Assembly: GCA_015272395.1 (NCBI GenBank) | Contig: JACYLQ010000038.1 | Span: 1 to 40,672, forward strand | Reading direction: 5' to 3' | From: Calothrix sp. C42_A2020_038 | GTDB taxonomy: Bacteria; Cyanobacteriota; Cyanobacteriia; Cyanobacteriales; Nostocaceae | Length of the DNA: 40,672 bases | Shown: piece after piece, positions 7,843-30,644 of the stretch | Layout: each line of letters opens with the position of its first letter | Position numbering within the stretch: position 1 is the first letter of the stretch | The notes under the pieces: model-generated | Databases searched by the model: none | What the model was told of the DNA's origin: nothing | What the model saw: the letters and a program-made list of their open reading frames with translations, nothing else | Translations under genes and position numbers: made by a program

Positions 7843-8469
7843 TCAAGCTCCTAAGTCAAAAACCTGTTCAGCGGTTAGATTTAACTGTGAGAAAGTAGGA
7901 GATACAATCCGGTCACTATCCCTAAATCGTGTCATTTGGTATTCGCCGTTAATCATCTCACATACGAAAATAGTAGGGACTTTAGGATTGCCAATAAATA
8001 TACGTCCACCTAATGCTGCATAATCTACAATCCAGTATTCAGGAATGCCCATAGCTTCATAATCACGAAGTTTGTTGTAATAATCATCCTGCCAATTAGT
8101 ACTAACAACTTCTACAATTAATTTTACTGAAGTCGCGTTTTGAATAACTGATTCACTTGCCCAGCGTGTTTCAGTGCCAATAGTTTCTTGATTCAAAACA
8201 ATAATGTCTGGTTCGTAACCTGTTAAGTTATTAGGCTTAACAATTGATTCTCTAGGTATTGTCCAAATTCTACGTTTACCCATCTCTCTAATGGTTATCA
8301 GTAATTCTTCTATTAAATAGCCTATTAAATCTGAATGTTTTCCTTTAGGTTTAGGCATTTCGACAATTACCCCATCATGCAATTCGTAATGTATATCTAA
8401 ATTATCTGGATACCATTCGATAAATTCATCGAATGTGTATAATCTTAATTCGGGTAAGGTGTGAGTCAT
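7843..8469 (-). CDS. Uma2-family putative endonuclease (DUF820, PD-(D/E)XK fold)
   Basis: This 208-residue protein has the usual length of the Uma2 family, which is greatly expanded in cyanobacteria. Hallmarks are YELHDGVIVEMPKPKGKHSDL near residues 28-48, GYEPDIIVL with D88, the strand LIVEVVST with E120, and the end motif YEAMGIPEYWIVDY. D88 and E120 are the likely metal-binding acids of a PD-(D/E)XK nuclease. The substrate and biological role of the family are not known. It is followed at once by a dapF remnant and IS debris. A shortened relative lies at 37799-38065. Confidence 0.85.
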   Translation of the reverse strand: MTHTLPELRLYTFDEFIEWYPDNLDIHYELHDGVIVEMPKPKGKHSDLIGYLIEELLITIREMGKRRIWTIPRESIVKPNNLTGYEPDIIVLNQETIGTETRWASESVIQNATSVKLIVEVVSTNWQDDYYNKLRDYEAMGIPEYWIVDYAALGGRIFIGNPKVPTIFVCEMINGEYQMTRFRDSDRIVSPTFSQLNLTAEQVFDLGA

Positions 8470-8603
8470 ATGTTCTAAGAATGAGTGTTTTTTTCTAATA
8501 TACTGTTTAACTCGCGTCTATGTGCTACCTCGGTTTTGCGTGGGTATTGCGGCGATCTTTTGCTTTAGGTTATCAATTGATGTTTCATTACGTGTATGAA
8601 AAT

Positions 8604-8627
8604 ATGATGTAACATAAGTTACATCAT
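8604..8627. promoter_or_regulatory. Perfect 10-bp inverted repeat with 4-base loop
   Basis: ATGATGTAAC (8604-8613) and GTTACATCAT (8618-8627) flank ATAA. The element sits between the TPR lipoprotein gene and the Uma2 gene, both minus strand. No T-run follows, so it is more likely an operator or mRNA hairpin than a terminator. Confidence 0.4.
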
Positions 8628-8671
8628 AACTATCAAATATTTCGGCAGCCGTAAGAAGAGGAAATTTTTGA

Positions 8672-9412
8672 CTAATTTAGTAAATCTTGAAATCGTTTGT
8701 CTCGGCGTAATGCAGTAAAATCGCTATCGGATTTTGCTAAAGCTTTGTATCTAGCTGGTTGTAACTGAATAGCTTTTTGCAGATTCTCGATAGCTTGTTC
8801 TAGATTATTTTGCAAAGCATAAGTACAAGCTTTGTTATAATATATTAAATGCTTATTCGGATTAATCGCAATGGCTTTGTCATAAGCAGCTATGGCTTCT
8901 TGATAGCGATGTAGTTTGGTTAAAGCTATACCTCGATTAATCCAGGCTTCTTCTTTATCGGGTTCAATCGCAATTGCTTTATCATAGGATGCAATAGCAT
9001 CTTGATACCGTTGTAATGTGCTTAAAACATTGCCACGATTGAACCAAGTTGTACTCAGCTGTGGGTTAATCTTAGCTGCATTATCATAAGATGTTATCGC
9101 TTCTTCATTTTTTTGTAAAACTGCCAATGCATTGCCACGATTAATCCAAGCCTCAGCAAAATTTGATCTAATATTTAGTACTTCGTCATATACTGCAATT
9201 GCTTCATTATATGAGCGCGCATTCTGTAAATTGTTCGCTTGGCGAAACAAGCTATCTACTTGTTTGGTTGTTTGAGCTTCGGTAAGTAGCTGCGCTACAT
9301 TTGATTCTCGCACCACTTGATGTTTATATTCTCCAGATGACGCTACATTACCACAGCCAAACATCAATAGTGTCATTAAGCCAGAGGCAACAAAACTTCT
9401 TGAATAAGTCAT
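8672..9412 (-). CDS. TPR-repeat protein, predicted lipoprotein
   Basis: The start is placed at the ATG at 9412 rather than the one 24 bases upstream. An AGGTG ribosome site precedes 9412 at good spacing, and from there the protein starts MTYSRSFVASGLMTLLMFGC, a lipoprotein-type signal with a cysteine after MFG. The rest is a row of TPR units of 34 residues (WINRGNALAVLQKNEEAI, WFNRGNVLSTLQRYQDAI, WINRGIALTKLHRYQEAI, YYNKACTYALQNNLEQAI). The tail LAKSDSDFTALRRDKRFQDL is typical of cyanobacterial TPR proteins. It probably acts as a protein-binding scaffold on the periplasmic side of a membrane. Its partner is unknown. Confidence 0.8.
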   Translation of the reverse strand: MTYSRSFVASGLMTLLMFGCGNVASSGEYKHQVVRESNVAQLLTEAQTTKQVDSLFRQANNLQNARSYNEAIAVYDEVLNIRSNFAEAWINRGNALAVLQKNEEAITSYDNAAKINPQLSTTWFNRGNVLSTLQRYQDAIASYDKAIAIEPDKEEAWINRGIALTKLHRYQEAIAAYDKAIAINPNKHLIYYNKACTYALQNNLEQAIENLQKAIQLQPARYKALAKSDSDFTALRRDKRFQDLLN

Positions 9413-9436
9413 TTTGCACCTACATAATTTATACAT

Positions 9437-10164
9437 ATTATGCTAAAACTTAGAATCCAATTAAAAAAGTAAAATGTAATACCATAAAGCCACGCTTTAT
9501 TGATTCTTTTTATTTGTCATGAAATGATGATTGTAATAAGCCTTTTTTTGCTTGATTTTAGCTTATTTATATTGATTCTTGACAGGTACTTCATATTTTT
9601 CTCAACAACGGATTTCTAATCTCAAGCAGAAGCTAAAAAGCTATTAAGCTTTTTTATTCGTGCGGTTATTTCTCTTTAGTTAAATAATATTATATTTTGT
9701 CATCTGCCAAGCTAAATTTATAAAAATATATAGTTTATGTATTGATTGTGACATAGAATCTAAGTATATGAAAAAAGCGCTCTCGCATGTGACTTTTTAG
9801 GTTATGTGTAAAACTTACAGCAAATTTCAAGTTGGTTAAATAAAGCCGAGCGGGCAAGGATGCCTACTCCACAACAGTTTGATTTGAATCTATGTATTTA
9901 CCTAAAAACCGCTGTAACTCTATAACTCCTTTTGGGAAGCCAGTGCGTTGCTGTCAACCAGTCCCGTGTGCTGAGAACTGATGAGGTCTCCCCTTTTATT
10001 TAAACCAGTGTGAAGAGATTTTTAACCCAAGTGTGAAAAGTCAGTTCCCATAGAAGCTTCAAAAGGTCAAACAAGCAAGGAAATAATTATTCTTGTTGAA
10101 TTTCACTCTTTAACGGATACGATAGGATGACTATCGTTAAGGAGTCGTGGCGAGAACATAAAAC
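9437..10164. other. 728-bp spacer with repeat remnants
   Basis: No gene is supported. An AT-only hairpin (9635-9642 with 9647-9654, AAAAAGCT and its complement) is present. The stretch from about 9845 (GAGCGGGCAAGGATGCCTAC) and the stretch about 9935-9998 (CAGTGCGTTGCTGTCAACCA and the following bases) resemble short dispersed repeats common in Nostoc-type spacers. An AAGGAG sits 22 bases before the ATG at 10165, too far to be the ribosome site by itself. Confidence 0.4.
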
Positions 10165-11508
10165 ATGACTGATAACAACTTAAATTCACCCCAAACGCCA
10201 GAACAAGTATCTGAAGACAAATTGCAACCTGATGATTTTGATGGTGGCGAAAATAGCCTTACATCCGATGAAATGGCTGCACAGCAAACATTTGCTGTCA
10301 TTAGTTCGCTGCAATCTCCACATAATACAAACGCTCTAAAGCAAACACGCTCTTATCTAGAAAAGCGCTCAAGTAACCTAGTGGTAGTCAAACCAAGGGC
10401 ATTTTTGATCACCCTTGTTTCTATTGGCTGCATTTTGATCGGTTTTGCCACAAATATTTGGATTATAGGCGCCTTGGGAACTATGGCAACTTTGGTATTG
10501 TCGCTGGCAATACTTTTTCCGTGGTTACGTGAGGTCTTCGACGAATGGTTTTCTCCTCAAGAACGCGCCGTCATTTTCGGCATGTTTACCTTATTTATAG
10601 GAATAATAGGTGCGATCAAATTTACAGGGTTTGCTGATGATATTTTGCGCTTGGGAAGAAGTATTAACTGGGATGCTTCAGGCGCCTTGGGAGAATGGTT
10701 TGGTGCATTAGGACAAATTTCAATTGCCATAATTGCTGTTTATGTCGCTTGGCGCCAGTATGTCATCTCTAAAGACTTAACAATTCAACAAAATCTACTT
10801 ACCGTTCAACAAAATATTATCACCCAACAGCAAACAATCGATTCCTACTTTCAAGGTATTTCCGATTTAGTTCTTGACGAAGAAGGATTGCTCGAAGACT
10901 GGCCTCAAGAACGGGCAATCGCCGAAGGACGTACAGCTGCAATACTTAGTAGTGTTGATGGTAGCGGAAAAGCTAAAATCCTCCGCTTTTTATCACGCTC
11001 AAGATTATTGACCCCACTCAAACGTGACCGTCATCTTGGACGGGCCATACTTGATGGTAGTGGGGGGTATGCAGAAGACCGTATTTCCGGACTACGTGTA
11101 ATTGATTTAGGTGTTACTCTCGCAGGTGCAGACCTTTCAGGAACTGATTTACGCTGGACAGACCTTTCTGAAGCGAACTTAGTACGTGCTAATTTAAGCG
11201 GCTGCGATTTAGTTAAAGCTAATTTTTCACGCACTATTCTATATGAAGCCAAGTTGAGCAACTCCGACTTAAAAACAACTCGCTTTTTCTATGGTTCTCA
11301 TGAAACTGCATCACCCCGTAGTCGAACTAATCCCCCAAACTACCAAACGGGTGAGTATACTGGTGCTGTAGTAGAAAATGCTGACTTTACAAATGTACAG
11401 CGTATGTCTGAGGCTGTGCGCTATTACTGTTGTGCTTGGTGTGGTGAAAAATCCCGCAACACAATTCCCGGTGGTTGCGAAGGTATTCCTAATAAATTAG
11501 AAAAGTAG
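10165..11508 (+). CDS. Pentapeptide-repeat membrane protein, first gene of the MoxR cluster
   Basis: This 447-residue protein has an acidic N-terminus, then four likely membrane helices (about 80-100, 103-120, 134-152 and 183-198). A glutamine-rich coiled stretch follows (205-225). A short pentapeptide-repeat segment lies at about 316-372 (A-D-L-S-G type units such as AGADLSGTDL and ANLVRANLSG). The C-terminus carries a cysteine cluster, C422, C423, C426 and C438, in YYCCAWCGEKSRNTIPGGC. The function is not known; the pentapeptide part is short and may mediate protein contacts. A stop codon at 10159-10161 rules out a longer frame. It ends 4 bases before the next gene, so the two are almost certainly co-transcribed. 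Confidence 0.8.
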   Translation: MTDNNLNSPQTPEQVSEDKLQPDDFDGGENSLTSDEMAAQQTFAVISSLQSPHNTNALKQTRSYLEKRSSNLVVVKPRAFLITLVSIGCILIGFATNIWIIGALGTMATLVLSLAILFPWLREVFDEWFSPQERAVIFGMFTLFIGIIGAIKFTGFADDILRLGRSINWDASGALGEWFGALGQISIAIIAVYVAWRQYVISKDLTIQQNLLTVQQNIITQQQTIDSYFQGISDLVLDEEGLLEDWPQERAIAEGRTAAILSSVDGSGKAKILRFLSRSRLLTPLKRDRHLGRAILDGSGGYAEDRISGLRVIDLGVTLAGADLSGTDLRWTDLSEANLVRANLSGCDLVKANFSRTILYEAKLSNSDLKTTRFFYGSHETASPRSRTNPPNYQTGEYTGAVVENADFTNVQRMSEAVRYYCCAWCGEKSRNTIPGGCEGIPNKLEK

Positions 11509-17027: not shown

Positions 17028-19331
17028 TTGAGTTTATTTTACAGATCTTACAGGCAAACAGTATTTAAAGGCAAACGTTCGCATGTCAACAATCATTTCC
17101 GTTCTGCTGGAATGTTTGTTTTTGTTGTGCTGTCTCTGTCTAGTGGACTTGGCTACCGTTTTTATAATCAGCCAAGATTGGATGTCGGTAAGAAAGCTCC
17201 CCAAACGCTGGTTGCACCAAATTCTGCTAGCGTCGAAGATGTAAAAACGACAGAGGAAAGACGTAGAGAAGCTCGTAGCGGAGCTTTGGCAGTATGGGTT
17301 ATTGACCCAGAAGTTAATGAGCGAATTCACCAAAATCTCCAGAAACTATTGACAAAGGCTAATCAAATCCGCGATGAGTTAGGCAACTTTCCATTTATCC
17401 AAACATCTATACTATCTACTGCAACGCAAACTTATTTAAGACAGGCGCCCGAACCGGAATGGCAGGCAGTATTACAAACCTTCGAGCAAAATAGTAATCT
17501 AACTGGCTTAAATTCTGCCCAACAGCGAGCAGTCAATGAACTGCGAGCATATCGTCAGTCTATCTCCTCTCCAATTTCTCAACTGTTGAAAACAATTACT
17601 CAAGCTCGTCAACGCTATCACATTGCTTTAAAAACCCTTAACAACATTAATTTAGCTCAATCCAAAATTTATGATGTGACTTTGTTAAACATATCTGATA
17701 CAGATTGGCAAGAAACTCCAATCCAATTGCACGAAACCTTAGACCGAATGTTAGCACAGGGCATCTATCCAGGGTTATCCCAGGATAACCTCAACTACGC
17801 AATCCAAATGCAAGTAAGTGTTTCTGTTACGAAAACAGCACAACCTTTAGCAAGACGATTGCTATCAATGGTGATAGAAGCTAATTTGACTAAAGATATA
17901 GAGCAAACCAAACTGATTGCTGAACAAGCTGCGCAGGCAGTAGACCCGGAAATAGTTACTATTCAAAAAGGTGAAGTTATTGTCAAAGCTGGAGAAAAAA
18001 TTACTCAAGCTGATTTTGTATTGTTAGATCATTTTGGTTTGAGTCAGCGTGGAATTGACTGGCTAAACCTAATGAGTTTTAGTGGAATAGTGGGATTGTC
18101 AGTAGTTATTTTCCGACTAGTAGAACGACGGATTAACCCCAAATTACGGCGTAGTGATTACATTTTGATTTTGCTGCTAATCCTTAGTACCCCTTTGCTA
18201 GTAGCTTTGACCCAATCGTTTACTGGTTTAACTGCTATTGGTTTGCTCCTTGGTAGCTTTTATGGCACGGCAATTGGGGGAACTGTTATGGGATTATTAA
18301 CAATACTGCTTTCAATCGGAACAGAACTTAAATGGTATTCTTTAATACCTAGTGCCATTGGAGGAATTATGGGCGGATTAATGGCTGGACAATGGCGATT
18401 TCCTGGTAGGGAAGCTCCGCGAACACGGGAGGAATTAGCAACCTTGGGAGTATTAATTGGGTTGGTACAGGGAGCGATTTATTTGTTGATAAATACTGCG
18501 ATTGCTCCGCTTTGGTATACTACACTCGGCGCTGCAGCTCTCAAAAGTTTAACAGGAATAGCCTGGAGTATCTTAGCATTAGGGTTGAGTCCCTACCTAG
18601 AAGCTTTATTTGATTTAGTTACGCCAATTCGTTTGGCTGAATTATCAAATCCCAACCGACCTTTATTAAAACGTCTAGCTCATGAGGCGCCTGGAACTTT
18701 CCAGCACACACTGTTTGTTGCAACTTTGGCAGAAGCTGCGGCACGAGCGCTCAATTGTAATGTAGAATTGGTTCGGGCTGGCGTTTTATATCATGATATT
18801 GGTAAAATGCATGACCCTCTGGGGTTTATTGAAAATCAAATAGGGAGTCAAAATAAGCACGACACGATCAATGACCCTTGGAAAAGTGCAGAAATTATTA
18901 AAAAGCATGTGAGCCAAGGCTTAGTAATGGCTCGTCAATATAAGTTGCCTAGCGCAATTCAGGCATTTATTCCCGAACATCAAGGAACGATATTAATTGC
19001 ATATTTTTATCAACAGGCGCAGCAAAGACAAGAAGAATTTAAAAAATTATTGCAAGAATCAGATTTTCGCTATGATGGGCCGATCCCTCAGTCGAAAGAA
19101 ACAGGAATTGTCATGTTGGCTGATGCTTGTGAGGCAGCGTTACGTTCACAGAAAGATTTAACCCCAGAAACTGCCCTAGCAATGGTAAATAAAATCCTGA
19201 AAGCACGTTGGCTAGATAATCAGTTGCTAGATTCAGGACTGACACGAGAGGAAATGCCTCAAATTGCCCATATTTTTGTCCAGGTCTGGCAGCAATTTCA
19301 TCACAAACGCATTGCCTATCCTAAAATTTAG
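17028..19331 (+). CDS. pgpH: 7TM-HD phosphohydrolase, PgpH-type c-di-AMP phosphodiesterase
   Basis: This 767-residue protein has an N-terminal helix (about 29-46), an extracytoplasmic domain beginning with VGKKAPQTLVAPNSASVEDVK, a block of membrane helices (about 345-530), and a C-terminal HD domain. The metal site is H589/D590 in LYHDIGKMHDP, with EHQGT downstream. This is the PgpH layout, whose known members degrade cyclic di-AMP; the substrate is inferred by family. The start is TTG at 17028, preceded by GGGGG. This matches the long N-terminus seen in cyanobacterial relatives; an ATG at residue 29 would cut into the first helix. Confidence 0.88.
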   Translation: MSLFYRSYRQTVFKGKRSHVNNHFRSAGMFVFVVLSLSSGLGYRFYNQPRLDVGKKAPQTLVAPNSASVEDVKTTEERRREARSGALAVWVIDPEVNERIHQNLQKLLTKANQIRDELGNFPFIQTSILSTATQTYLRQAPEPEWQAVLQTFEQNSNLTGLNSAQQRAVNELRAYRQSISSPISQLLKTITQARQRYHIALKTLNNINLAQSKIYDVTLLNISDTDWQETPIQLHETLDRMLAQGIYPGLSQDNLNYAIQMQVSVSVTKTAQPLARRLLSMVIEANLTKDIEQTKLIAEQAAQAVDPEIVTIQKGEVIVKAGEKITQADFVLLDHFGLSQRGIDWLNLMSFSGIVGLSVVIFRLVERRINPKLRRSDYILILLLILSTPLLVALTQSFTGLTAIGLLLGSFYGTAIGGTVMGLLTILLSIGTELKWYSLIPSAIGGIMGGLMAGQWRFPGREAPRTREELATLGVLIGLVQGAIYLLINTAIAPLWYTTLGAAALKSLTGIAWSILALGLSPYLEALFDLVTPIRLAELSNPNRPLLKRLAHEAPGTFQHTLFVATLAEAAARALNCNVELVRAGVLYHDIGKMHDPLGFIENQIGSQNKHDTINDPWKSAEIIKKHVSQGLVMARQYKLPSAIQAFIPEHQGTILIAYFYQQAQQRQEEFKKLLQESDFRYDGPIPQSKETGIVMLADACEAALRSQKDLTPETALAMVNKILKARWLDNQLLDSGLTREEMPQIAHIFVQVWQQFHHKRIAYPKI

Positions 19332-19443: not shown

Positions 19444-20169
19444 ATGACCACCTTTGACAATGGCGATAGATTACAATATTTGGCAGTGGCAGTTCAAAAC
19501 CAACCACCTGAGAGTTCGCAGAGACACCGGGCTTTGGGTTTACTAATTCAAGAACTTGGGAAACAGCCGACAGTGGGGGTTTTACGAAAAAATCTTAAGA
19601 AAAAATATTGGAGTTTGATGGATGGACTTTTTGAAGAGTTATTCAACGAAGCACTTCAAGATACATTTATTGCCATTAGTCGAGGGATTGATAAATATGA
19701 CTGCCAACGTCCACTGCTACCTTTAGTTTGTAAAATTGTTAGCAATAAATTTAGTTATCTTCATAAAAAATATACTAGAAGTGGTATTACAAATATTCCC
19801 AAGAGTCAAGATAATACTCATAGCCATTTTAAACTAGGTCAGATAATATCTTTAGATGGATTAGAGGATTTTGCGCACGATAATGTAATTGGTGAATATG
19901 TATTATATGTTCAAGACAAAGTTTTATCTGACCGGGATTTACTCAGAGAATTATTAATAAATGACCCAGATAATATTTTCAAAACATCACATATTAGAAA
20001 TCAACCACATATTACTTTTCAATATCTTGCCATATCTCTATATATAGAAGGTAAAAATATGCAACAGCTATCGAAGGAGTTAAAAGTTCATTATCAAACT
20101 CTAAATAGTTTTTTCAAACGAAAATTGGAGAAATTGGAACCATATTTTCGAGAATACTTAGGAGCTTAA
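19444..20169 (+). CDS. Sigma-70-like factor (cyanobacterial, DUF1822-linked)
   Basis: This 241-residue protein lacks the classical four-region sigma pattern but looks like an ECF-type sigma factor. The segment LFNEALQDTFIAISRGIDKY followed by PLLPLVCKIVSNKFSYLHKK fits region 2. The end, YIEGKNMQQLSKELKVHYQT plus LNSFFKRKLEKLEP, fits a region-4 helix-turn-helix. Such genes often stand directly before DUF1822 genes in cyanobacteria, as here (37-bp gap, same direction). It may direct transcription of this locus or others. Recognition is by layout and helix pattern, so the class is moderately sure and the regulon unknown. Confidence 0.65.
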   Translation: MTTFDNGDRLQYLAVAVQNQPPESSQRHRALGLLIQELGKQPTVGVLRKNLKKKYWSLMDGLFEELFNEALQDTFIAISRGIDKYDCQRPLLPLVCKIVSNKFSYLHKKYTRSGITNIPKSQDNTHSHFKLGQIISLDGLEDFAHDNVIGEYVLYVQDKVLSDRDLLRELLINDPDNIFKTSHIRNQPHITFQYLAISLYIEGKNMQQLSKELKVHYQTLNSFFKRKLEKLEPYFREYLGA

Positions 20170-20206: not shown

Positions 20207-21355
20207 ATGAATACTACAAATACTACTAATTTAATGACAATTCCGCTTGCTTCTGAAGCCCATTCTCTTGCTCAAGTGTACAGTAAGCAACATAATCGTC
20301 CCGAAAAGGTCAAACAAGTATACTTAAACACTTTAGCAATTTATGCAGTCGAACATTATTTTCGGCGCCAAGGTTTTGTTCCCGACTGGGAAGGTAGTGA
20401 TAGTCGCAAAGTAATTGTGCAGAAGTTTCTTGATATTGCTGATTTGAATATTCAAAATCTAGGTAAGTTTGAATGTCGTCCTATATTACCTGGCGCCGAT
20501 ATTTTGGAAATACCTTGCGAAGCTTGGGATGAGCGACTAGGATATATTGCAGTCCAGCTGACTCAATCTTTACAAGAAGCAATATTAATAGGATTTGTGC
20601 CACATGTAGTTGAACCAGGAATTATACCTTTGAGCCAACTACGCGCGTTTGCAGAACTTCCAAGATATTTAAGTCAAATACAAAATAAAAATGTAGATGC
20701 GCTACCAAAACTTGTATATTTAGAAAACTGGTTGAATAATATTTTTGATTCTAGCTGGCAGACAGTAGAAGAATTTTTTAGTACTAAAACATATAATATT
20801 GCTTTTAGAAATCATGTTATCCTAACAGAAAGTCTGAATCTCAATGATAAAGACAGTCTTAAAGAATTTGTTGCATCTTTATATGCTAACCAACGTCATG
20901 CAAGCTCAACAGAAAAAATCTACCCTACTCAATTAGAACCAGTAACAGCATTAAGTCAACTCATTAACTCAACTCAAGATGACGAGACTCGTTGGAAAGC
21001 AATTGAACTTCTCTGGAAAATCAAACCCAACCACCCATCAGCTGCAACCAGAAGAATTACTGATTTAGGAATGCAGCTAGCGGGATATTCTATTGCTTTA
21101 ATGGTTGCTACCTTACCCAAGCTTGATGGTCGAAGAGGTATTCTCTTACGTGTTTACCCAATGGGTAATCAACCATACTTACCACCAAATCTAAAATTAA
21201 TCGGTTTCGATGAAACTGGTAAAACACTGCTCGAAGTTCAAGCACGGAGTCAAGATAATTACATCCAATTTCGATTTAACGCTGACCCAGGAGACAAATT
21301 TAGTGTTCAAGTTGCTTTAGGAACAGCAAGTATCACGGAATATTTCATGGTTTAG
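20207..21355 (+). CDS. DUF1822 family protein
   Basis: This 382-residue protein has the family start, MTIPLASEAHSLAQVYSKQH, followed by KVKQVYLNTLAIYAVEHYFR and GKFECRPILPGADILEIPCE. The middle region is variable. The C-terminal part, YSIALMVATLPKLDGRRGIL plus LRVYPMGNQPYLPPNLKLIG, is a conserved beta-rich domain of these proteins. DUF1822 is nearly restricted to cyanobacteria and is commonly linked to sigma-like factors and CHAT-domain proteins. No enzymatic motif is visible and the function is unknown. It follows the sigma-like gene and converges on the CHAT gene across a palindromic terminator. Confidence 0.88.
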   Translation: MNTTNTTNLMTIPLASEAHSLAQVYSKQHNRPEKVKQVYLNTLAIYAVEHYFRRQGFVPDWEGSDSRKVIVQKFLDIADLNIQNLGKFECRPILPGADILEIPCEAWDERLGYIAVQLTQSLQEAILIGFVPHVVEPGIIPLSQLRAFAELPRYLSQIQNKNVDALPKLVYLENWLNNIFDSSWQTVEEFFSTKTYNIAFRNHVILTESLNLNDKDSLKEFVASLYANQRHASSTEKIYPTQLEPVTALSQLINSTQDDETRWKAIELLWKIKPNHPSAATRRITDLGMQLAGYSIALMVATLPKLDGRRGILLRVYPMGNQPYLPPNLKLIGFDETGKTLLEVQARSQDNYIQFRFNADPGDKFSVQVALGTASITEYFMV

Positions 21356-21504: not shown

Positions 21505-24141
21505 CTAAAATCTTTCATCGATAAAGTCGCATGAAGAGTTTTTGCATTCCACTTTAACTAATACACCAAAACGATTATCATGACGAATAGGTTTGCGACT
21601 ACCCTTTTCTGGTTGAGTTTCAAATTCAATAATTGCTGTGGCACCTTTTGCTCTAAAATTTTCAATATTATTAAGTATATTGTCTTTGAGTTTCTGACGA
21701 TTAGGTTCTCCTGTAATTGTTTTTAAGCCTTTGTTAATAACTTGGACTGCATCGTATGACATAACAGTTACCCAGTTAATTTTTGTAGTTCCCCAGAGTT
21801 GATTTGCTTCTTTCTCGAAAGGAGAATCATTTCTATGCCAAGTAACGGAGACAAGTAGTTTGCTTTTTTCACAAGCTTGACCAAAAGTACTGTTTTTAGT
21901 TTTATCATCGTACAGGGTGCTAGAACCTAATACGATGAATCGATTATCTTGTAAATTCGCAATTGCTTTTACTATTTCTAACGCTTTATTTAAAACACTT
22001 TCAACACCAGATGGAACAAGTAATATAACGTTTGGATTAAACGTGTTAACTTTGCTGATAATTTGTTCTACACTGTCCCTTTGTAAATTGTATGAAGAGA
22101 CATTTAGCGGATTAATATTTTTGACAAAATTATCTTTGATTGATTGACTGTAAGATTCTCCTTCGTGATATGCAACAATTGCTCTAATGTTAGCTGATGG
22201 AATTTTTGTTGATATATATTGATGCATATTTGCGACAGCACTGATATCACTGGGTACTGTACGAAGAACGGTATATGTTAATTGACTTAATTGAGTAGAG
22301 GTGCTGGTGGGAGAAACAACAAGAATTTTATCTTTGTATTCATTATTTACAGCAGTAATAGTAAGCTCACTTCGATAGTGACCAATCACAGCTAAAATAT
22401 CTTGTTGGTTCTTATCATTTACTAGTCTACGCGCGACTTCGATTGTTGTTTCGTGATTATTACCATCATCTACTATTTCGACCTCTAATAGTTTGCCATT
22501 AATGCCATTTGTACAAGTTTGATTTTGATTATTATTAATATATTTTACAATTTTATCAACACTACCACAATTGATTTTGCTTTGGGCGTGAGCAACACCG
22601 CGCAAAATTCTTTCTGCAACGTTTAGATTTTTGCTAATAGGTACACTCACTGCGATATGTATATTATCTTTTCCTGTTGCTTCTGCAATTGCATTATTTA
22701 GATAAATGAGACTTTCAGGGTCGTTGGGAACATTTTTTAATGACTCTCGATAAGCATCAATGACGAACTGCCAATTTTTTCCATACTCACGACTTGCTCT
22801 TTCTTTGGCAGAATTAGTCGTAAATAAAATTTTATCACCTCGACTAAAAAGTTTATCGATACTTGGACTATTTACTAAAGAAATTGGAGTGTTTTTATTA
22901 CTTGAAGGAGGAGTTTTTTGGGTTATCGACTCTGGTGAATGAATAATTAATCCGATTATAATAGCCGTGCAAATTCCTAGTAGTACTAAAGTTGCTAGTG
23001 TGGCAAATTTATGTGAACGCCAAAGCTTTTGGATACCACGTTGAATTTTTATATGCAGAGGTTGGCGCCAGTATAAAGAGCTTTCAGCAGGGTTTTGACA
23101 AACTACAGGTAGCCAAGAAGCATAAGGATATAAATGTTCAATATCTTCTAACTTTTCCTGTGCTTTTCGCATCGCTAAGTGAAACCTTTCTCCTTGCGAA
23201 AACAGATGTAAGAATTCCTGTAAAAATTCCTTTGCTACTTCATCGGGTACAGGTTCACGCATGACTATTATCTGCGGAATACCTAATTCTGTCAGTTTAC
23301 TTGCTAACCCTAAACCATCACATGAATTGAAAATCGCTAGCTTTAAACCATTCTCGATTGCTTTAATAAAAGCATTTCTTAAATCTTTCAGCGATGGACT
23401 ATCAATATTATTAATTTGAATAACTCCGTCGTTTCCCTGACTTGATGTTGCACTGTGTCCGGCAAAGCATAATATATCCCAGTTACCAGTACGTAATTTA
23501 TCACATAGCTGCTTCCTAGTTGGTTGTTTGAGAGCTTCAACCTTAGAGCTTGGTAAATTACTAATTACTCTTCCATCTACAAGAACATCAATTCTATCGT
23601 CAACACCTAAAACTGCTAATATCTTAACTGGTGTTTGAAGTGGTTTTGAAGGTGGGTTATATTTGGCGCCTAATGATAACCAAGCTCGTTTACGGTTTTG
23701 AAATAATTTCCACAAATGCCAAGGTAATTTCTTTAAAATTTCGTTATTAGTCTGAAAAATAATCCGTGCAGATTCATCTTTGCCCACTTCTTCTTCAATA
23801 TATACACGTAGTTGTCCCATTGACGGATGCTCAAACCATTCCATTAGTCTCTGTTCCAACGCTCTACCAGCTTCCCTGCAACTGTCTGGAGTCGAGATGT
23901 TGGTTGTTTGCTCAGGGTCAACATCAATACCTCTGCCTAGACGAGTTACTCTTCGTACCGCATCCAAGTTGTGATAATTATTTTGAAAATTATTATACAA
24001 TTCCGGAATATCCGGCGCCGATGGAAATTGACCTAATTCTTCTTTGTAAACAGTACCACCTTCTTCGCGAATTCGCAGGGTAACAGGAAAACCTTGTTCA
24101 AAATTACCATTGCCGATAGTGAATACAACCACCTTACTCAT
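21505..24141 (-). CDS. CHAT protease - membrane helix - LivJ-type ligand-binding fusion
   Basis: This 878-residue protein has three parts. Residues about 100-355 form a CHAT (caspase-like, clan CD) domain with H229 in CFAGHSATS and C274 in AIFNSCDGLGLASKL, the expected catalytic pair. One membrane helix follows at about 379-401 (FATLATLVLLGICTAIIIGL). Residues about 490-870 form a type I periplasmic binding domain like branched-chain amino-acid receptors (DNIHIAVSVPISKNLNVAER, LAVIGHYRSELTITAVNNEY, VVSPTSTSTQLSQL). Without an N-terminal signal, the protease should be cytoplasmic and the sensor extracytoplasmic. This suggests ligand-controlled proteolysis, which is inference. It lies 71 bp after a histidine kinase gene on the same strand. 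Confidence 0.85.
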   Translation of the reverse strand: MSKVVVFTIGNGNFEQGFPVTLRIREEGGTVYKEELGQFPSAPDIPELYNNFQNNYHNLDAVRRVTRLGRGIDVDPEQTTNISTPDSCREAGRALEQRLMEWFEHPSMGQLRVYIEEEVGKDESARIIFQTNNEILKKLPWHLWKLFQNRKRAWLSLGAKYNPPSKPLQTPVKILAVLGVDDRIDVLVDGRVISNLPSSKVEALKQPTRKQLCDKLRTGNWDILCFAGHSATSSQGNDGVIQINNIDSPSLKDLRNAFIKAIENGLKLAIFNSCDGLGLASKLTELGIPQIIVMREPVPDEVAKEFLQEFLHLFSQGERFHLAMRKAQEKLEDIEHLYPYASWLPVVCQNPAESSLYWRQPLHIKIQRGIQKLWRSHKFATLATLVLLGICTAIIIGLIIHSPESITQKTPPSSNKNTPISLVNSPSIDKLFSRGDKILFTTNSAKERASREYGKNWQFVIDAYRESLKNVPNDPESLIYLNNAIAEATGKDNIHIAVSVPISKNLNVAERILRGVAHAQSKINCGSVDKIVKYINNNQNQTCTNGINGKLLEVEIVDDGNNHETTIEVARRLVNDKNQQDILAVIGHYRSELTITAVNNEYKDKILVVSPTSTSTQLSQLTYTVLRTVPSDISAVANMHQYISTKIPSANIRAIVAYHEGESYSQSIKDNFVKNINPLNVSSYNLQRDSVEQIISKVNTFNPNVILLVPSGVESVLNKALEIVKAIANLQDNRFIVLGSSTLYDDKTKNSTFGQACEKSKLLVSVTWHRNDSPFEKEANQLWGTTKINWVTVMSYDAVQVINKGLKTITGEPNRQKLKDNILNNIENFRAKGATAIIEFETQPEKGSRKPIRHDNRFGVLVKVECKNSSCDFIDERF

Positions 24142-24212: not shown

Positions 24213-26513
24213 CTAAAATATAGAAGACCCAGCAGCCAATTCCATAATTTGATCGAAATGAAAATTATTGACAAGTTGGTGTAGTGCTGACGCTAGAGTT
24301 GCGTGTTCTTGAGGAATATGACTTAATAGCTGTAAAATTCTTTCGTCACTACATTCACAAGCAGCAATGTAAAGCGACTGTTGCCATTGGTATGGCATTA
24401 CTTCTAGGTCTTGTTTAGTTAATCTAACTGGCTGTGAATGGCTAACAAGGCTTTGGTTATGGTTTTCATCAATATATACTACTCCTAAATGCGTCGCTAT
24501 TTTATCAAATATCTCCTCTGCTTGAAATGGTTTACTTTGAAAATCATCGCATCCAGCAGAAAATATTTTTACACGTTCTTCTTCGAGAGCGCTAGCTGTC
24601 AAAGCGATAATTTTGGTCGCTTGCCTTTTTTCTTGAACTAACGCTTTGATTTTTTGTGTTGCTTGATACCCATCTAGCAAAGGCATTTGCATATCCATAA
24701 AAATTAAATGTGGTTGCCAACTATGCCATAAATCTATACCTTGTTCTCCATTGATAGCTTCCTGAACTGCAAAACCTAATGGAATTAATAGTTGTGCTAA
24801 AAGATGACGATGTTCCCATGAATCATCAACTATAAGAATACGAAAGTTGGGTTGTCCAGGCGCCAATTTTATAGGTTTGCTACGCATGATTTCCTCAACT
24901 TGTATTTGTTGTACCCGAACTGGTATGTCAAAGGAAAATACACTTCCTTCACCAACAGTACTTTCAATTTTGATTTCACCACCCATTAATTGGATGAAAC
25001 TGCGACTGAGTGATAAACCTAGTCCTGTACCTTGTTGCGTTTGCTCAATAGTTGAAGATTGTGCGAAAGCTTCAAATAAGTTATCGATTTCTTCAACGGC
25101 AATGCCAATACCTGTATCGCTAACCTCGAAGTGCAAAAAGGAAATATTAAGGTTTTCTGGCTGCTCATTTCCAAGTGTTACATATAATGTCACAGTACCT
25201 TTAGATGTAAATTTAATGGCATTGCTAAGTAAATTCAGTAGCACTTGTCGTAATTTTCTTTCGTCGGCATTAATATACTGTGGTACATTTTTTGCCTGCG
25301 TGAAGATGAGAGTTAGATGTTTAGATACAGCAAGTGGAGACATGCTAACTTTTAACTCATCAAGCAAATTATACAAATCAAAGTTAGTGTTATTGAGCTT
25401 GATTTTACCTGCTTCAATTTTAGATATTTCCAACACATCATTAATCAAACCGAGTAAGTGCTGCCCATTACGATTGATAATATCAAGATACTTACTTTGT
25501 GTTTGACCACAAGTACTGCGATAAATTACTTGAGTGAAACCTAAAATACTATTGAGAGGAGTTCTAAGTTCATGACTCATCCGTGCCAAAAATAGGCTTT
25601 TAGCACGATTGGCATTTTCTGCATTCAATAAAGCTTGCTTTAACTCAGCTTCTGCTTGTTTACTCAATCTAACATTTTGGAATACACCGATTATATACTG
25701 GAGTTGTCGATGAGCATCAAACACTAACGATAAATTAATTTCTATCCATTTTATCTGATTATCTTTGCTTTGTACACAGGCTTCAAATGAGCAGTTTGCA
25801 TCTTCACCTCTATATAATTTATCAATAGATGTTTGATATAAATTTAAGTATTCAGATAAAATAATTTCTTGTAAATTTAAATCGAGCAATTCTGACTCTA
25901 AGTATCCTAAAATCTCGCAAAATTTACGATTGACCTGTAGAAATTTTCCAGAAGGTGCCATCTGGGTAATTCCTACAGGTGCTTGTTCAAAAAATAAACG
26001 ATACTGATTCTCACTTTCACTTCGTTGAATTTCAACTTGTTTACGTTGATTAATTTCTGGTTGCAACTGCTGATTTAATCGCTTTATTTGTGAAACTGGC
26101 TTGTGCTTGAGTAAGTCTGCTGATTGAAGAATATCTCTGATGGCTTCGTATGTAATGACTCCAACCACCTCAATTCCTGAAACTACTGCAAGATGAGAAA
26201 CGTGATTGTGATAAAGCAAGTGAACTACCGTGAAAATATCTTCGACTTCATTTTCTGAAATCGTTACTAATTGCAATGATATGACTTCTAATACACGAGT
26301 CTCATTAAAAATAATACCTCTTGCAGCCGCACAAACAATATCTTTTTCAGTGATAATCTTTGTCAAGCTGGTTTTCTCATTATCATCTTGACTTACTAGC
26401 GCATAGCTACTGCAGTGCTGACTCATTAAAGCAACAGCGTCAGATAACAGTATGTCTGACGAAATAATTAGTGGGTGGTAGTTAATCGCCGATTTTATAT
26501 CAATAGTTGACAT
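24213..26513 (-). CDS. Hybrid histidine kinase with CBS pair, PAS, HisKA-HATPase and receiver
   Basis: This 766-residue protein starts with two CBS motifs (about 1-130), which usually bind adenosyl nucleotides. A PAS domain follows (about 165-285, FFEQAPVGITQMAPSGKFLQ). Then comes the kinase core: H-box MSHELRTPLN with H314, N-box LLNLLSNAIKFT, G1 DTGIGI and G2 GTGLGLSLS. The receiver (about 555-670) has IVDDS, phosphoacceptor D607 in IFMDMQMPLLDG, and the lysine in SKPF. The last 90 residues match no domain I know. There is no membrane helix, so it is a soluble sensor. It is just upstream of the CHAT fusion gene with no terminator seen between them. Confidence 0.9.
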   Translation of the reverse strand: MSTIDIKSAINYHPLIISSDILLSDAVALMSQHCSSYALVSQDDNEKTSLTKIITEKDIVCAAARGIIFNETRVLEVISLQLVTISENEVEDIFTVVHLLYHNHVSHLAVVSGIEVVGVITYEAIRDILQSADLLKHKPVSQIKRLNQQLQPEINQRKQVEIQRSESENQYRLFFEQAPVGITQMAPSGKFLQVNRKFCEILGYLESELLDLNLQEIILSEYLNLYQTSIDKLYRGEDANCSFEACVQSKDNQIKWIEINLSLVFDAHRQLQYIIGVFQNVRLSKQAEAELKQALLNAENANRAKSLFLARMSHELRTPLNSILGFTQVIYRSTCGQTQSKYLDIINRNGQHLLGLINDVLEISKIEAGKIKLNNTNFDLYNLLDELKVSMSPLAVSKHLTLIFTQAKNVPQYINADERKLRQVLLNLLSNAIKFTSKGTVTLYVTLGNEQPENLNISFLHFEVSDTGIGIAVEEIDNLFEAFAQSSTIEQTQQGTGLGLSLSRSFIQLMGGEIKIESTVGEGSVFSFDIPVRVQQIQVEEIMRSKPIKLAPGQPNFRILIVDDSWEHRHLLAQLLIPLGFAVQEAINGEQGIDLWHSWQPHLIFMDMQMPLLDGYQATQKIKALVQEKRQATKIIALTASALEEERVKIFSAGCDDFQSKPFQAEEIFDKIATHLGVVYIDENHNQSLVSHSQPVRLTKQDLEVMPYQWQQSLYIAACECSDERILQLLSHIPQEHATLASALHQLVNNFHFDQIMELAAGSSIF

Positions 26514-27813: not shown

Positions 27814-29202
27814 CTACAGATTTTGGCGTAACCAATCTTTAATTTCTTGTGCTATCCACATACACTCATGGGCACTAAGACCTATACCGAATGAGAAACG
27901 TTTAGCTTCTGTTTGAATCGTAACCATTTCTTTTTCTTGATTACTTTCGAGTTGCATGTTATCTTCTTTTGCTAAACGTACAATACTCTGAAATACGTCT
28001 CGTATTTCTCGAACACGACCAGTTTTACGACTACGACAAAAGTTGAATACCCATAGTTCGATTCCAAACTTTTCTTTGTTAACAAAAATTTTTTGGTTTC
28101 CTAAATCAGAAATTATTACTAAATCTATAATTCCTAACCAAATTAATAGTAAAGGTAAACTTATACCAATAGTTACAATCGACAAACCAAATATTCCAAA
28201 TGTTAAGGTCGATAAAAAGGTAATTCCAAGTGTACCAAATATCAAATATTTTACAGCTAGGGCTATTATTTTTACACCATCTAGATGTTTCCTAGGAAGG
28301 ACTATGTTTAGCTCATTAGGGGATTTTTTAATTTTTACTAAGCTATAAGATGGTTTTTGAAAAGGTTTAAATATTTCCTGGCTAGAAGATGTTTTGAGTA
28401 TATGATTTGATTCTAGTGCTTCCAATGCTTCAGTGGCACTACTGATACGTCTTTCTACAGAAGGTTCAGTAATTTTTTCAATCCAAGCAAGAAAATTTTG
28501 ACTAATATTGACTTGATTGTGAAATTGTATTTTTAAATCGCGAACTGGCAAGTCAGCAGGAGGGATACCTGTCAATAAATGAATTATAGTCGCACCTAAT
28601 CCATATAAATCAGATGCTGCAACAGCTTTGCCCCCAAATTGCTCCATTGGTGCATAACCGTATGTTCCTACAACTGTAAAAGTAACACCTTCTTTTGCTG
28701 CCTTATCTTGAACGGCGCCGAAGTCAACCAAATATATGAGCTTATCTTCTCCTAAAATCAAATTACTTGGTTTAATATCTCGGTGTAAGACAGTAGGATT
28801 GAGTTGATGTAGATAAATTAAAATATTTAAAACTTCACTAGCAATTTCACGAACTTGTTTTTCGCTAAATCTTTTTCCTTGTAATAACAAGTCCTTAAGT
28901 GAATGACCAGGAATATACTCTTCGACTAGCACAAACCACAGTACCCGGTCATCTATCGAAAAATAATCAATATATTTAGGAATTCTTGGATGGTCAAGAT
29001 GCTTGAGAATTTGAGCTTCACGTTCAAATAACTTTAAATCATCCCATTGGACATTACCACCAAAAGCGAGTAATTTCACAACTACATAAGAATTCTCGCT
29101 ACCACTCAAATCAGTAGCCAACCAAGTTTGACGCGCTGCATTATTACCAAGTTGGCGTTCCAGCTTGTAACGATTTTGCAATATTTGTTCTGCTTGGAGC
29201 AT
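27814..29202 (-). CDS. Serine/threonine protein kinase with C-terminal membrane domain (paralogue 1)
   Basis: This 462-residue protein has an N-terminal Hanks-type kinase domain (about 11-265). The ATP lysine is K43 in VVKLLAFGG, the catalytic loop HRDIKPSN is at 140-147, the DFG is at 160-162, and GTYGYAPMEQFGG is the activation segment. The glycine loop is the unusual LGNNAARQTW, typical of this cyanobacterial subfamily. Residues about 315-365 are hydrophobic helices, then a soluble tail ending in WIAQEIKDWLRQNL. It is likely membrane-bound with a cytoplasmic kinase. The next gene upstream encodes a close paralogue of the kinase part with a different tail. The target is unknown. Confidence 0.9.
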   Translation of the reverse strand: MLQAEQILQNRYKLERQLGNNAARQTWLATDLSGSENSYVVVKLLAFGGNVQWDDLKLFEREAQILKHLDHPRIPKYIDYFSIDDRVLWFVLVEEYIPGHSLKDLLLQGKRFSEKQVREIASEVLNILIYLHQLNPTVLHRDIKPSNLILGEDKLIYLVDFGAVQDKAAKEGVTFTVVGTYGYAPMEQFGGKAVAASDLYGLGATIIHLLTGIPPADLPVRDLKIQFHNQVNISQNFLAWIEKITEPSVERRISSATEALEALESNHILKTSSSQEIFKPFQKPSYSLVKIKKSPNELNIVLPRKHLDGVKIIALAVKYLIFGTLGITFLSTLTFGIFGLSIVTIGISLPLLLIWLGIIDLVIISDLGNQKIFVNKEKFGIELWVFNFCRSRKTGRVREIRDVFQSIVRLAKEDNMQLESNQEKEMVTIQTEAKRFSFGIGLSAHECMWIAQEIKDWLRQNL

Positions 29203-29333: not shown

Positions 29334-30527
29334 TTAGAAAAAAGCTCTAAAAGCTTTTGAGACTGTGACTATGGCAATAACCCACATGATAATACTAACG
29401 GGCGCCCCAATTAAAAGTCCTGCAATTGTCCAACCACGTTGATGGCGTTGAAAATGCTCAATACTGCGCCAACGTCTACTTTTCCATGCCCACTCATTGC
29501 CTTTGGATCCAAGAATAACACTCATCACAATTCCAATGGATGGGAAAAAACATAACAAACCAATCCAAACTTGGTTAGTCCATATCCATAACCAAGGCAT
29601 GAAAAAGGCACCCCAATTCCATCCTAAGATTTCTTCGGGAACAGGAGCAATACTATTAATTCCACATCCTGAGTTATTAAGTTCTGGAGTTAGTTTGTTT
29701 TGTTTTACTAATTCAAACCTTGCACCAGATTCAAGTGCTGTTAATGCTTGGGTGGCGCTGAAAAAACGATCTTCAGGAGCAGGTTCAGTTAACTTTTGTA
29801 ACCATTCCAGAAAACTAGGGTTTACATTAACCAAATGACTAAACTCTATTTTTAACGAGCGTTGTGGTAACTCTGAAGGTGGAAAACCTGTAAGTAAATG
29901 AATCAAAGTTGCCCCCAGCGCATACAAATCAGATGCAGGAACAGCTCTACCACCAAACTGTTCCATTGGTGCGTAGCCATAAGTGCCGACAACTGTAAAC
30001 GTCACGCCTTCTTTAGCTGCTTTATCTTGAACGGCGCCAAAATCCACTAAATATATATGATTATCTTCACCCCATATTAAATTGCTTGGTTTTATATCGC
30101 GATGCAATACAATCGGGTTTAACTCGTGCAAGTAAATCAGTATTGTTAAAACTTCCACAGCAATTTTATGTACTTGCTTGGAGCTAAAACGCTGACAAGC
30201 AGTAAGTTTCTCTTTTAGCGACTCTCCCGGTATATATTTTTCAACTAAGCCAAACCACAAACTACGGTCATCAATACAAAAATAATCAAGATACTGAGGA
30301 ATTCTGGGGTGGTTCAGTTGTTTGAGTATTTGTGCTTCGCGTTCAAACAGTTTTAAATCGTCCCACTGGACGGCGCCTCCAAATGCGAGCAATTTAACTA
30401 CAACTAATGATTCACCATCGGACTCAGCTTGTAAGTCTCTGGCCAGCCAAGTTTGGCGGATACCGTTATTACCTAGTTGACGTTGTAACTGGTAACGATT
30501 TTGTAACACTTGTTCAGATTGCAGCAT
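29334..30527 (-). CDS. Serine/threonine protein kinase with a different membrane tail (paralogue 2)
   Basis: The start is set at the ATG at 30527, where an AGAGGAA ribosome site precedes MLQSEQVLQNRYQLQRQLGN. This aligns with the start of the neighbouring paralogue; an in-frame ATG 105 bases upstream would add an unrelated leader. The kinase motifs match the neighbour: VVKLLAFGG, HRDIKPSN, DFGAVQDKAAKEGVTFTVVG and APMEQFGG. The C-terminal part after PEEILGWNWGAFFMPWLW has two or three membrane helices and KGNEWAWKSRRWRSIEHFQR, a small membrane module seen in many bacterial proteins. The two kinases arose by tandem duplication and then swapped or diverged in their tails. Confidence 0.9.
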   Translation of the reverse strand: MLQSEQVLQNRYQLQRQLGNNGIRQTWLARDLQAESDGESLVVVKLLAFGGAVQWDDLKLFEREAQILKQLNHPRIPQYLDYFCIDDRSLWFGLVEKYIPGESLKEKLTACQRFSSKQVHKIAVEVLTILIYLHELNPIVLHRDIKPSNLIWGEDNHIYLVDFGAVQDKAAKEGVTFTVVGTYGYAPMEQFGGRAVPASDLYALGATLIHLLTGFPPSELPQRSLKIEFSHLVNVNPSFLEWLQKLTEPAPEDRFFSATQALTALESGARFELVKQNKLTPELNNSGCGINSIAPVPEEILGWNWGAFFMPWLWIWTNQVWIGLLCFFPSIGIVMSVILGSKGNEWAWKSRRWRSIEHFQRHQRGWTIAGLLIGAPVSIIMWVIAIVTVSKAFRAFF

Positions 30528-30644
30528 CTTTCCTCTGCTGTCAAATGAGCGTACCAATATCTTTATGGTACCGAGAATATTCAAAAGTGAGTACGTGGCG
30601 CCAACCAGATTACAACGACACGCACCAAACACCAGCGCAAATAG

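What the first reader, a model, noticed from the sequence alone, without database searches (positions are those of the whole stretch)
21505..24141. Single protein joining an intact CHAT protease, a membrane helix and a LivJ-type ligand-binding domain
H229 and C274 form the expected CHAT dyad, one helix lies at about 379-401, and the C-terminal 380 residues look like a periplasmic amino-acid receptor. The topology suggests that an outside ligand controls an inside caspase-like protease. Known CHAT systems are usually triggered by TPR or other cytoplasmic partners, so a built-in extracytoplasmic receptor would be a different way of gating.
Basis: partly seen in the sequence, partly recalled or inferred. 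Interest (0 to 1): 0.72.

Follow-up and report, generated by a model that had tools for sequence, protein, structure and literature searches.

The report
Membrane receptor fused to caspase-like protease
A cyanobacterial protein joins what looks like an outside small-molecule receptor to an inside caspase-like protease and sits beside a sigma-factor-like gene; this belongs to a published type of bacterial signalling system, so the layout is not new, but how it works has not been tested.

Summary
ORF 21505-24141(-), 878 aa, has a CHAT protease (E 2.9e-15), one membrane helix and a Peripla_BP_6 domain (E 1e-12). H229 and C274 are kept in 49 of 49 aligned proteins. Charge around the helix favours N-in/C-out in 51 of 57 proteins, the reverse in 1.

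The layout is conserved: 57 of 79 loci carry it, 32 of them in one direction with a sigma-like gene and DUF1822. In this window those two genes converge on the CHAT gene. In the same genome the same protease module carries CHASE2 or STAND-WD40 instead. This fits the published EACC2-caspase systems (PMC8195603). Caspase-TM-PBP proteins and a metacaspase with an ANF receptor are also in print (PMC7159879, PMC2853523), so the 'different way of gating' is not new in kind.

Best reading: an outside ligand gates an inside protease, with output through the sigma/DUF1822 pair; type III-E CRISPR (Csx29-Csx30-sigma) is the closest worked example. Ligand, substrate and activity are untested. The LivJ-like fold is clear; an amino-acid ligand is not established.

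The parts
21505..24141 (-). CHAT-TM-PBP protein, 878 aa
   Evidence: orthologues
23665..24141 (-). N-terminal alpha+beta domain (residues about 1-159), candidate EACC2
   Evidence: model secondary structure; present in paralogues with other C-termini; name given by description only
23092..23628 (-). CHAT protease core (residues about 172-350), H229 and C274
   Evidence: Pfam; conservation; hhalign
22939..22998 (-). membrane helix, residues about 382-401
   Evidence: hydropathy and charge; helix 362-399 in model
22678..22860 (-). linker with TPR-like helices and the conserved PNDPE..IYLNN motif (residues about 428-488)
21517..22665 (-). periplasmic-binding-protein domain (residues about 493-875)
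   Evidence: Pfam; PDB profile; Foldseek
19444..20169 (+). sigma-70/ECF-like protein, 241 aa
   Evidence: weak alone; 20 of 42 family members match sigma70-ECF at E <= 0.01
20207..21355 (+). DUF1822 protein, 382 aa, convergent with the CHAT gene
   Evidence: Pfam E 2.5e-74; model

Best explanation
The protein is a single-pass membrane receptor-protease of the published EACC2-caspase kind. The constant N-terminal alpha+beta plus CHAT module lies in the cytoplasm, and the variable C-terminal sensor, here a LivJ-fold binding protein on a TPR-like stalk, lies outside. Supported by sequence: the domains, the intact dyad, the sidedness signal, sensor swapping and the genetic link to a sigma-like gene and DUF1822. 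Inferred: a small molecule closes the binding protein, the change passes through the helix to the CHAT dyad, and the protease cleaves a cytoplasmic target that frees or activates the neighbouring sigma factor. DUF1822 is my first candidate for the target.
For: Domains and dyad. Topology: net charge of 15 residues before the helix above that after it in 51 of 57 proteins, equal in 5, lower in 1; means +3.2 and +0.1 (57 = those of the 67 CHAT-PBP proteins that are at least 800 aa and show N.CDG). Separate linker-PBP proteins without CHAT start, by eye, with a short basic stretch and a hydrophobic anchor in L120, L122 and L145. Neighbourhood of 57 CHAT-PBP loci, searched to 5 kb: sigma and DUF1822 co-directional 32; DUF1822 alone co-directional 7; convergent 7 (4 scored so, plus L106-L108, which the script scored DUF1822 'co' because of a second DUF1822); neither 11, four of these with under 4 kb of upstream sequence. 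DUF1822-to-CHAT gaps: 32 measured, -11 to 383 nt. Sensor swapping: CHASE2, nSTAND1-WD40, PBP_like_2, trypsin/COP23, NB-ARC and NACHT occur with the same module; on the tree of 100 modules the PBP label needs 8 changes, at least 4 forced by well-supported branches. Sigma family: 7 of 42 members match the type III-E CRISPR sigma model at E <= 0.01, best 1e-5. Precedent: Csx29 cleaves the sigma inhibitor Csx30 (PMC10028731; abstract and passages seen).
Against: No activity, ligand or substrate was tested. DUF1822's profile finds only a designed protein at E 1.7 among solved structures, and Csx30 is not among the 50 Foldseek rows shown. In the window the CHAT gene is convergent with sigma/DUF1822, and 11 of 57 loci show neither gene within 5 kb. 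The window's sigma-like protein has no Pfam sigma match and lies far below every NCBIfam cut-off; the family profile against solved structures gives an ECF sigma only at E 0.47, behind an integrase. Loop position 741 is D or E in 11 of 49 and S in the window, so an amino-acid ligand is doubtful. Five of 57 proteins lack a window of mean hydropathy 1.6. A first, cruder charge count was weaker: 41 of 67 higher, 13 equal, 13 lower. The pTM of the model is 0.57, so the relative placement of the parts is not informative.
Confidence: 0.5

Rival explanations
1. Self-processing release: ligand binding triggers autoproteolysis and frees a part of the protein, as Kaur 2020/2021 propose for EACC1/EACC2 systems; the sigma/DUF1822 pair acts later or separately.
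For: Autopeptidase activation is proposed in print (PMC8195603 section 9; PMC7159879 section 33). The module occurs with many C-termini. 11 of 57 loci show no sigma or DUF1822 within 5 kb.
Against: In the PBP versions the C-terminus looks like an outside sensor, not a cytoplasmic effector to be set free. DUF1822 or sigma lies nearby in 46 of 57 loci.
Confidence: 0.25
2. Death effector: an outside signal unleashes a CHAT protease that kills the cell or stops growth, as an anti-phage or kin-signal response.
For: Kaur et al. place these systems in a conflict and apoptosis network (PMC8195603).
Against: No PADLOC family for the CHAT or DUF1822 protein and only E 0.033 for the sigma-like one. The sigma-like gene points to a transcriptional output (inference).
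Confidence: 0.15
3. The PBP is a ligand scavenger or structural domain that does not signal, and the CHAT domain is regulated by cytoplasmic partners.
For: The ligand is unknown and pocket position 741 varies.
Against: S591 is kept in 48 of 49 and D797 is D or E in 49 of 49. The receptor slot is swapped for other sensors such as CHASE2 and PBP_like_2.
Confidence: 0.08

Closest known systems
EACC2-caspase systems (Kaur 2021, PMC8195603)
   Same: N-terminal alpha+beta domain plus caspase-fold protease, variable C-terminus including CHASE2 and small-molecule-binding domains, neighbouring ECF sigma gene and DUF1822 (section 9 read).
   Different: No word beginning 'peripla' occurs in that paper's main text; figures and source data could not be seen. 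In the window sigma/DUF1822 are convergent with the CHAT gene.
EACC1 caspase-TM-PBP proteins (Kaur 2020, PMC7159879)
   Same: Caspase-fold protease, TM helices, outside PBP (section 33 read).
   Different: Those systems have a separate EACC1 membrane gene and are said to be prevalent in actinobacteria; no sigma/DUF1822 pair is described in that section.
Cyanobacterial metacaspase-ANF_receptor and metacaspase-CHASE2 proteins (PMC2853523, PMC3501461)
   Same: Caspase-fold domain with a receptor domain; an inside-protease/outside-receptor topology is argued for the CHASE2 protein (passages seen).
   Different: Peptidase C14 metacaspases, not described as CHAT; single proteins in those surveys.
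Type III-E CRISPR Csx29-Csx30-CASP-sigma (PMC10028731)
   Same: CHAT protease, an ECF-like sigma factor and a third protein; 7 of 42 sigma-family members match the III-E sigma model.
   Different: Trigger is RNA through Cas7-11; the trigger here would be an outside ligand; DUF1822 shows no detected relation to Csx30.
ECF54 sigma factors
   Same: A sigma group reported to lie near CHAT proteases, with proteolytic control proposed (PMC8999054, one passage seen).
   Different: Membership of the window's sigma-like gene in ECF54 was not tested.

Membership tests
CHAT proteases (PF12770) | Pfam score above the curated cut-off | tested here: met
   56.9 bits against 24
CHAT proteases (PF12770) | His/Cys dyad | tested here: met
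   49 of 49 at both positions; aligned with the dyad of ordinary CHAT domains
CHAT proteases (PF12770) | proteolytic activity | not testable with these tools
   needs biochemistry
Peripla_BP_6 / LivJ fold | family score and fold | tested here: met
   48.8 bits against 31.7; Foldseek best rows LivK, LivJ-type and Atu2422, E to 1.3e-17
Peripla_BP_6 / LivJ fold | amino-acid ligand | tested here: inconclusive
   S591 kept in 48 of 49; position 741, in the loop where solved relatives such as 4gnr carry an acidic residue, is D or E in 11 of 49. The role of that residue is recalled.
[quoted passage not shown]
EACC2-caspase systems | variable C-terminus | tested here: met
EACC2-caspase systems | ECF sigma and DUF1822 neighbours | tested here: met
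   in the window convergent rather than co-directional, and the sigma call is weak for the window protein alone
EACC2-caspase systems | sequence match to the published EACC2 alignment | not tested
Type III-E Craspase module | Cas7-11 partner nearby | tested here: inconclusive
   none among the 16 window ORFs scanned against Pfam, of 34 ORFs of 100 aa or more
Type III-E Craspase module | Csx30-like sigma inhibitor | tested here: inconclusive
   no Csx30 match by profile or among the Foldseek rows shown; a functional role was not tested

The most novel reading that the evidence does not exclude
A ligand-gated counterpart of the CRISPR Craspase pathway: a binding protein outside the membrane switches a CHAT protease inside, which cuts DUF1822 as an anti-sigma protein and releases the neighbouring sigma factor. 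This would be a one-protein transmembrane receptor-protease route to transcription, with interchangeable sensors (PBP, double PBP, PBP_like_2, CHASE2), spread over cyanobacteria.
Probability: 0.25. Interest if true: 0.75.

Novelty: new member of a known kind. Interest (0 to 1): 0.42.

Why it matters
If the reading is right, cyanobacteria hold a modular set of receptor-proteases that link outside chemistry to sigma-controlled transcription, parallel to histidine kinases and anti-sigma proteolysis. PBP-type receptors usually bind small molecules that can be screened (general knowledge), so these versions could give a defined trigger for a protease family otherwise known mainly from CRISPR and conflict systems.

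Tried and rejected
DUF1822 as a Csx30 homologue: the profile finds only a designed protein at E 1.7 among solved structures; the 50 Foldseek rows shown are weak beta-sandwich and other matches, none Csx30. Kept as an analogy only.

DUF1822 as a pure TPR protein (as named in PMC8195603): the model shows an alpha/beta N-terminal domain, helices at 215-272 and a C-terminal all-beta domain.

Defence-system filing: PADLOC gave no match for the CHAT or DUF1822 protein, and only RTasSLATT at E 0.033 for the sigma-like one.

Structural overlay of the CHAT part on Csx29: not reached. The CHAT profile against solved structures gave only weak rows: ribosomal protein L3 first (E 0.023), a CHAT protein (8tl0) third at E 0.05, with its GH and NAC residues aligned to the dyad.

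Tree: a first quick tree counted single- and double-PBP proteins as different labels and put L099 under 'other', although Pfam finds CHASE2 in it. Both were mended on the finished careful tree. There the PBP label needs 8 changes (7-9 in bootstrap trees), at least 4 forced by well-supported branches, against 24.9 for shuffled labels. Its 100 rows come from searches seeded with CHAT-PBP proteins; 7 cut rows were dropped, identical modules were entered once, and L098 and L099 sit on very long branches.

Charge counts: (K+R only, fragments included) gave 41 of 67 higher on the N side, 13 equal, 13 lower; (net charge; 9 of 67 dropped as under 800 aa and 1 without the N.CDG pattern) gave 51, 5 and 1 of 57.

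Literature: searches for CHAT domain with periplasmic binding and cyanobacteria and Peripla_BP with CHAT domain found no paper; this covers only the held open-access library.

Full report
What is there. The ORF at 21505-24141(-) encodes 878 residues. It holds a CHAT domain at 197-334 and a Peripla_BP_6 domain at 539-822, both above Pfam's cut-offs. H229 and C274 are in FAGHS and NSCDG. A structure model from 49 sequences has mean pLDDT 88.8, with an alpha+beta domain, the CHAT core, a long helix at 362-399, a floppy stretch at 400-426, TPR-like helices at 444-488 and a binding-protein domain to 875. Among the 50 Foldseek rows shown, LivK, LivJ-type proteins, the Atu2422 GABA/alanine receptor and, lower, metabotropic glutamate and calcium-sensing receptors appear; no CHAT or caspase is among them. 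The pTM is 0.57, so the relative placement of the parts is not reliable.

Topology. The only strongly hydrophobic stretch of the window protein starts at about 381-383. Among 57 proteins (window included; 10 of 67 dropped as short or without the N.CDG pattern), the net charge of the 15 residues before the helix exceeds that after it in 51, equals it in 5 and is lower in 1; 52 of 57 reach mean hydropathy 1.6. A first, cruder count gave 41 of 67 higher, 13 equal, 13 lower. CHAT-less linker-PBP proteins exist; by eye those in L120, L122 and L145 start with an anchor-like stretch, which would export this module.

Relatives. In 192 genomes of the family, 24 have a match at E <= 1e-100; most but not all of those rows cover both parts. 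A scan of genome contigs gave 78 loci from a list cut at the best 80. With the window, 57 of 79 loci hold 67 proteins with both parts. The rows of the tree for which a phylum is shown are Cyanobacteriota. L121 carries four CHAT-PBP genes in a row. In a sample of 292 genomes of the phylum, 25 match at E <= 1e-80, but only 5 of the 34 rows, in 5 genomes with the window's own, span both parts; only three candidates per genome were scored, so this is a lower bound.

Catalytic and pocket residues. In 49 aligned proteins, H229, C274, D189, N272 and D275 are kept in all 49; S591 and R627 in 48; P611 in 46; D797 is D in 45 and E in 4. Position 741, in the loop where solved relatives such as 4gnr carry an acidic residue, is D in 10, E in 1 and S in the window. 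The ligand class is therefore open. That this acidic residue binds the amino group in LivJ-type proteins is recalled.

Neighbours. The sigma-like gene 19444-20169(+) and the DUF1822 gene 20207-21355(+) converge on the CHAT gene. The sigma call is weak for the window protein alone, and the family profile finds no solid match among solved structures (best ECF sigma E 0.47). At family level 20 of 42 members match sigma70-ECF, 7 match the type III-E CRISPR sigma model and 7 match Pfam Sigma70_r2, all at E <= 0.01. Of the 57 CHAT-PBP loci, 32 have both genes co-directional within 5 kb, 7 have DUF1822 only, 7 are convergent (window and L105-L110; three of these were scored 'co' for DUF1822 by the script because of a second DUF1822 nearby) and 11 show neither (map). 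In the unnamed-genome set, the window's orthologues L073-L079 and the more distant L085 are also convergent. Gaps in co-directional loci are short: 32 DUF1822-to-CHAT gaps of -11 to 383 nt and 27 sigma-to-DUF1822 gaps of -80 to 118 nt.

Modularity. In the window's own genome the same protease module is fused to CHASE2 (L093, L095, L096, L099) or nSTAND1-WD40 (L094), and the linker-PBP module sits on AAA-TPR proteins (L097). L095, L098 and L099 also have DUF1822 upstream. Elsewhere the module occurs with PBP_like_2, trypsin/COP23, pentapeptide repeats, NB-ARC or NACHT. On the finished tree of 100 modules the PBP label (single and double together) needs 8 changes, 7-9 in bootstrap trees and at least 4 on well-supported branches, against 24.9 for shuffled labels: sensors are clustered but have been exchanged several times. 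The sample was seeded with PBP proteins.

What is known. Kaur 2021 (PMC8195603; section 9 read) describes EACC2 plus caspase with variable C-termini, ECF sigma and DUF1822, and proposes stimulus-induced autopeptidase activation with sigma output. Kaur 2020 (PMC7159879; section 33 read) names caspase-TM-PBP proteins in EACC1 systems. Jiang 2010 (PMC2853523; passages) lists a Nostoc punctiforme metacaspase with an ANF receptor, annotated as a branched-chain amino-acid transport component. Asplund-Samuelsson 2012 (PMC3501461; passages) reports ANF_receptor and CHASE2 metacaspases and argues the inside/outside topology for the CHASE2 one. PMC10028731 (abstract and passages) shows Csx29 cleaving Csx30, an inhibitor of CASP-sigma. 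A review (PMC8999054; one passage) notes CHAT proteins near ECF54 genes. First authors' names for PMC2853523 and PMC3501461 are recalled. The window protein fits the EACC2 kind by the features tested; the published EACC2 alignment itself was not available.

Verdict. It is a new member of a described kind. What remains open, and worth testing, is whether ligand binding gates the protease and whether DUF1822 is the protease target that holds the sigma factor.

Noticed in passing
window 24213-26513(-): A CBS-PAS-histidine kinase-receiver gene ends 71 bp before the CHAT gene on the same strand; histidine-kinase-like ORFs also precede the CHAT gene in L073, L074, L075, L076 (short) and L078, but none was found there in L077 or L079.
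   Followed up: partly
window 17028-19331(+): A 7TMR-HD membrane protein with an HD domain lies upstream of the sigma-like gene.
   Followed up: no
L087, L118, L124, L126, L130, L131, L133, L140: CHAT proteins of 1230-1250 aa with two PBP modules in tandem (Pfam-checked for L087 only).
   Followed up: partly
L121:3446-13656: Four CHAT-PBP genes in a row on one strand.
   Followed up: no
L120, L122, L134, L137, L145: Separate linker-PBP proteins without CHAT near CHAT-PBP genes, possible partners or decoys.
   Followed up: partly
L150:4476-6536, L137:11683-13857: The same CHAT module fused to a different binding-protein family, PBP_like_2.
   Followed up: partly
L097:5189-8185 and 8241-11225: Two adjacent proteins in the window's genome carry the same linker-PBP module; the first is AAA-TPR-PBP by Pfam.
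   Followed up: no
window 27814-29202(-) and 29334-30632(-): Two adjacent Ser/Thr protein kinase genes.
   Followed up: no
L079:6306-7271: A short second copy of the CHAT module lies upstream of the CHAT-PBP gene; one search reports two TAA stops inside that match (G012:C33).
   Followed up: no
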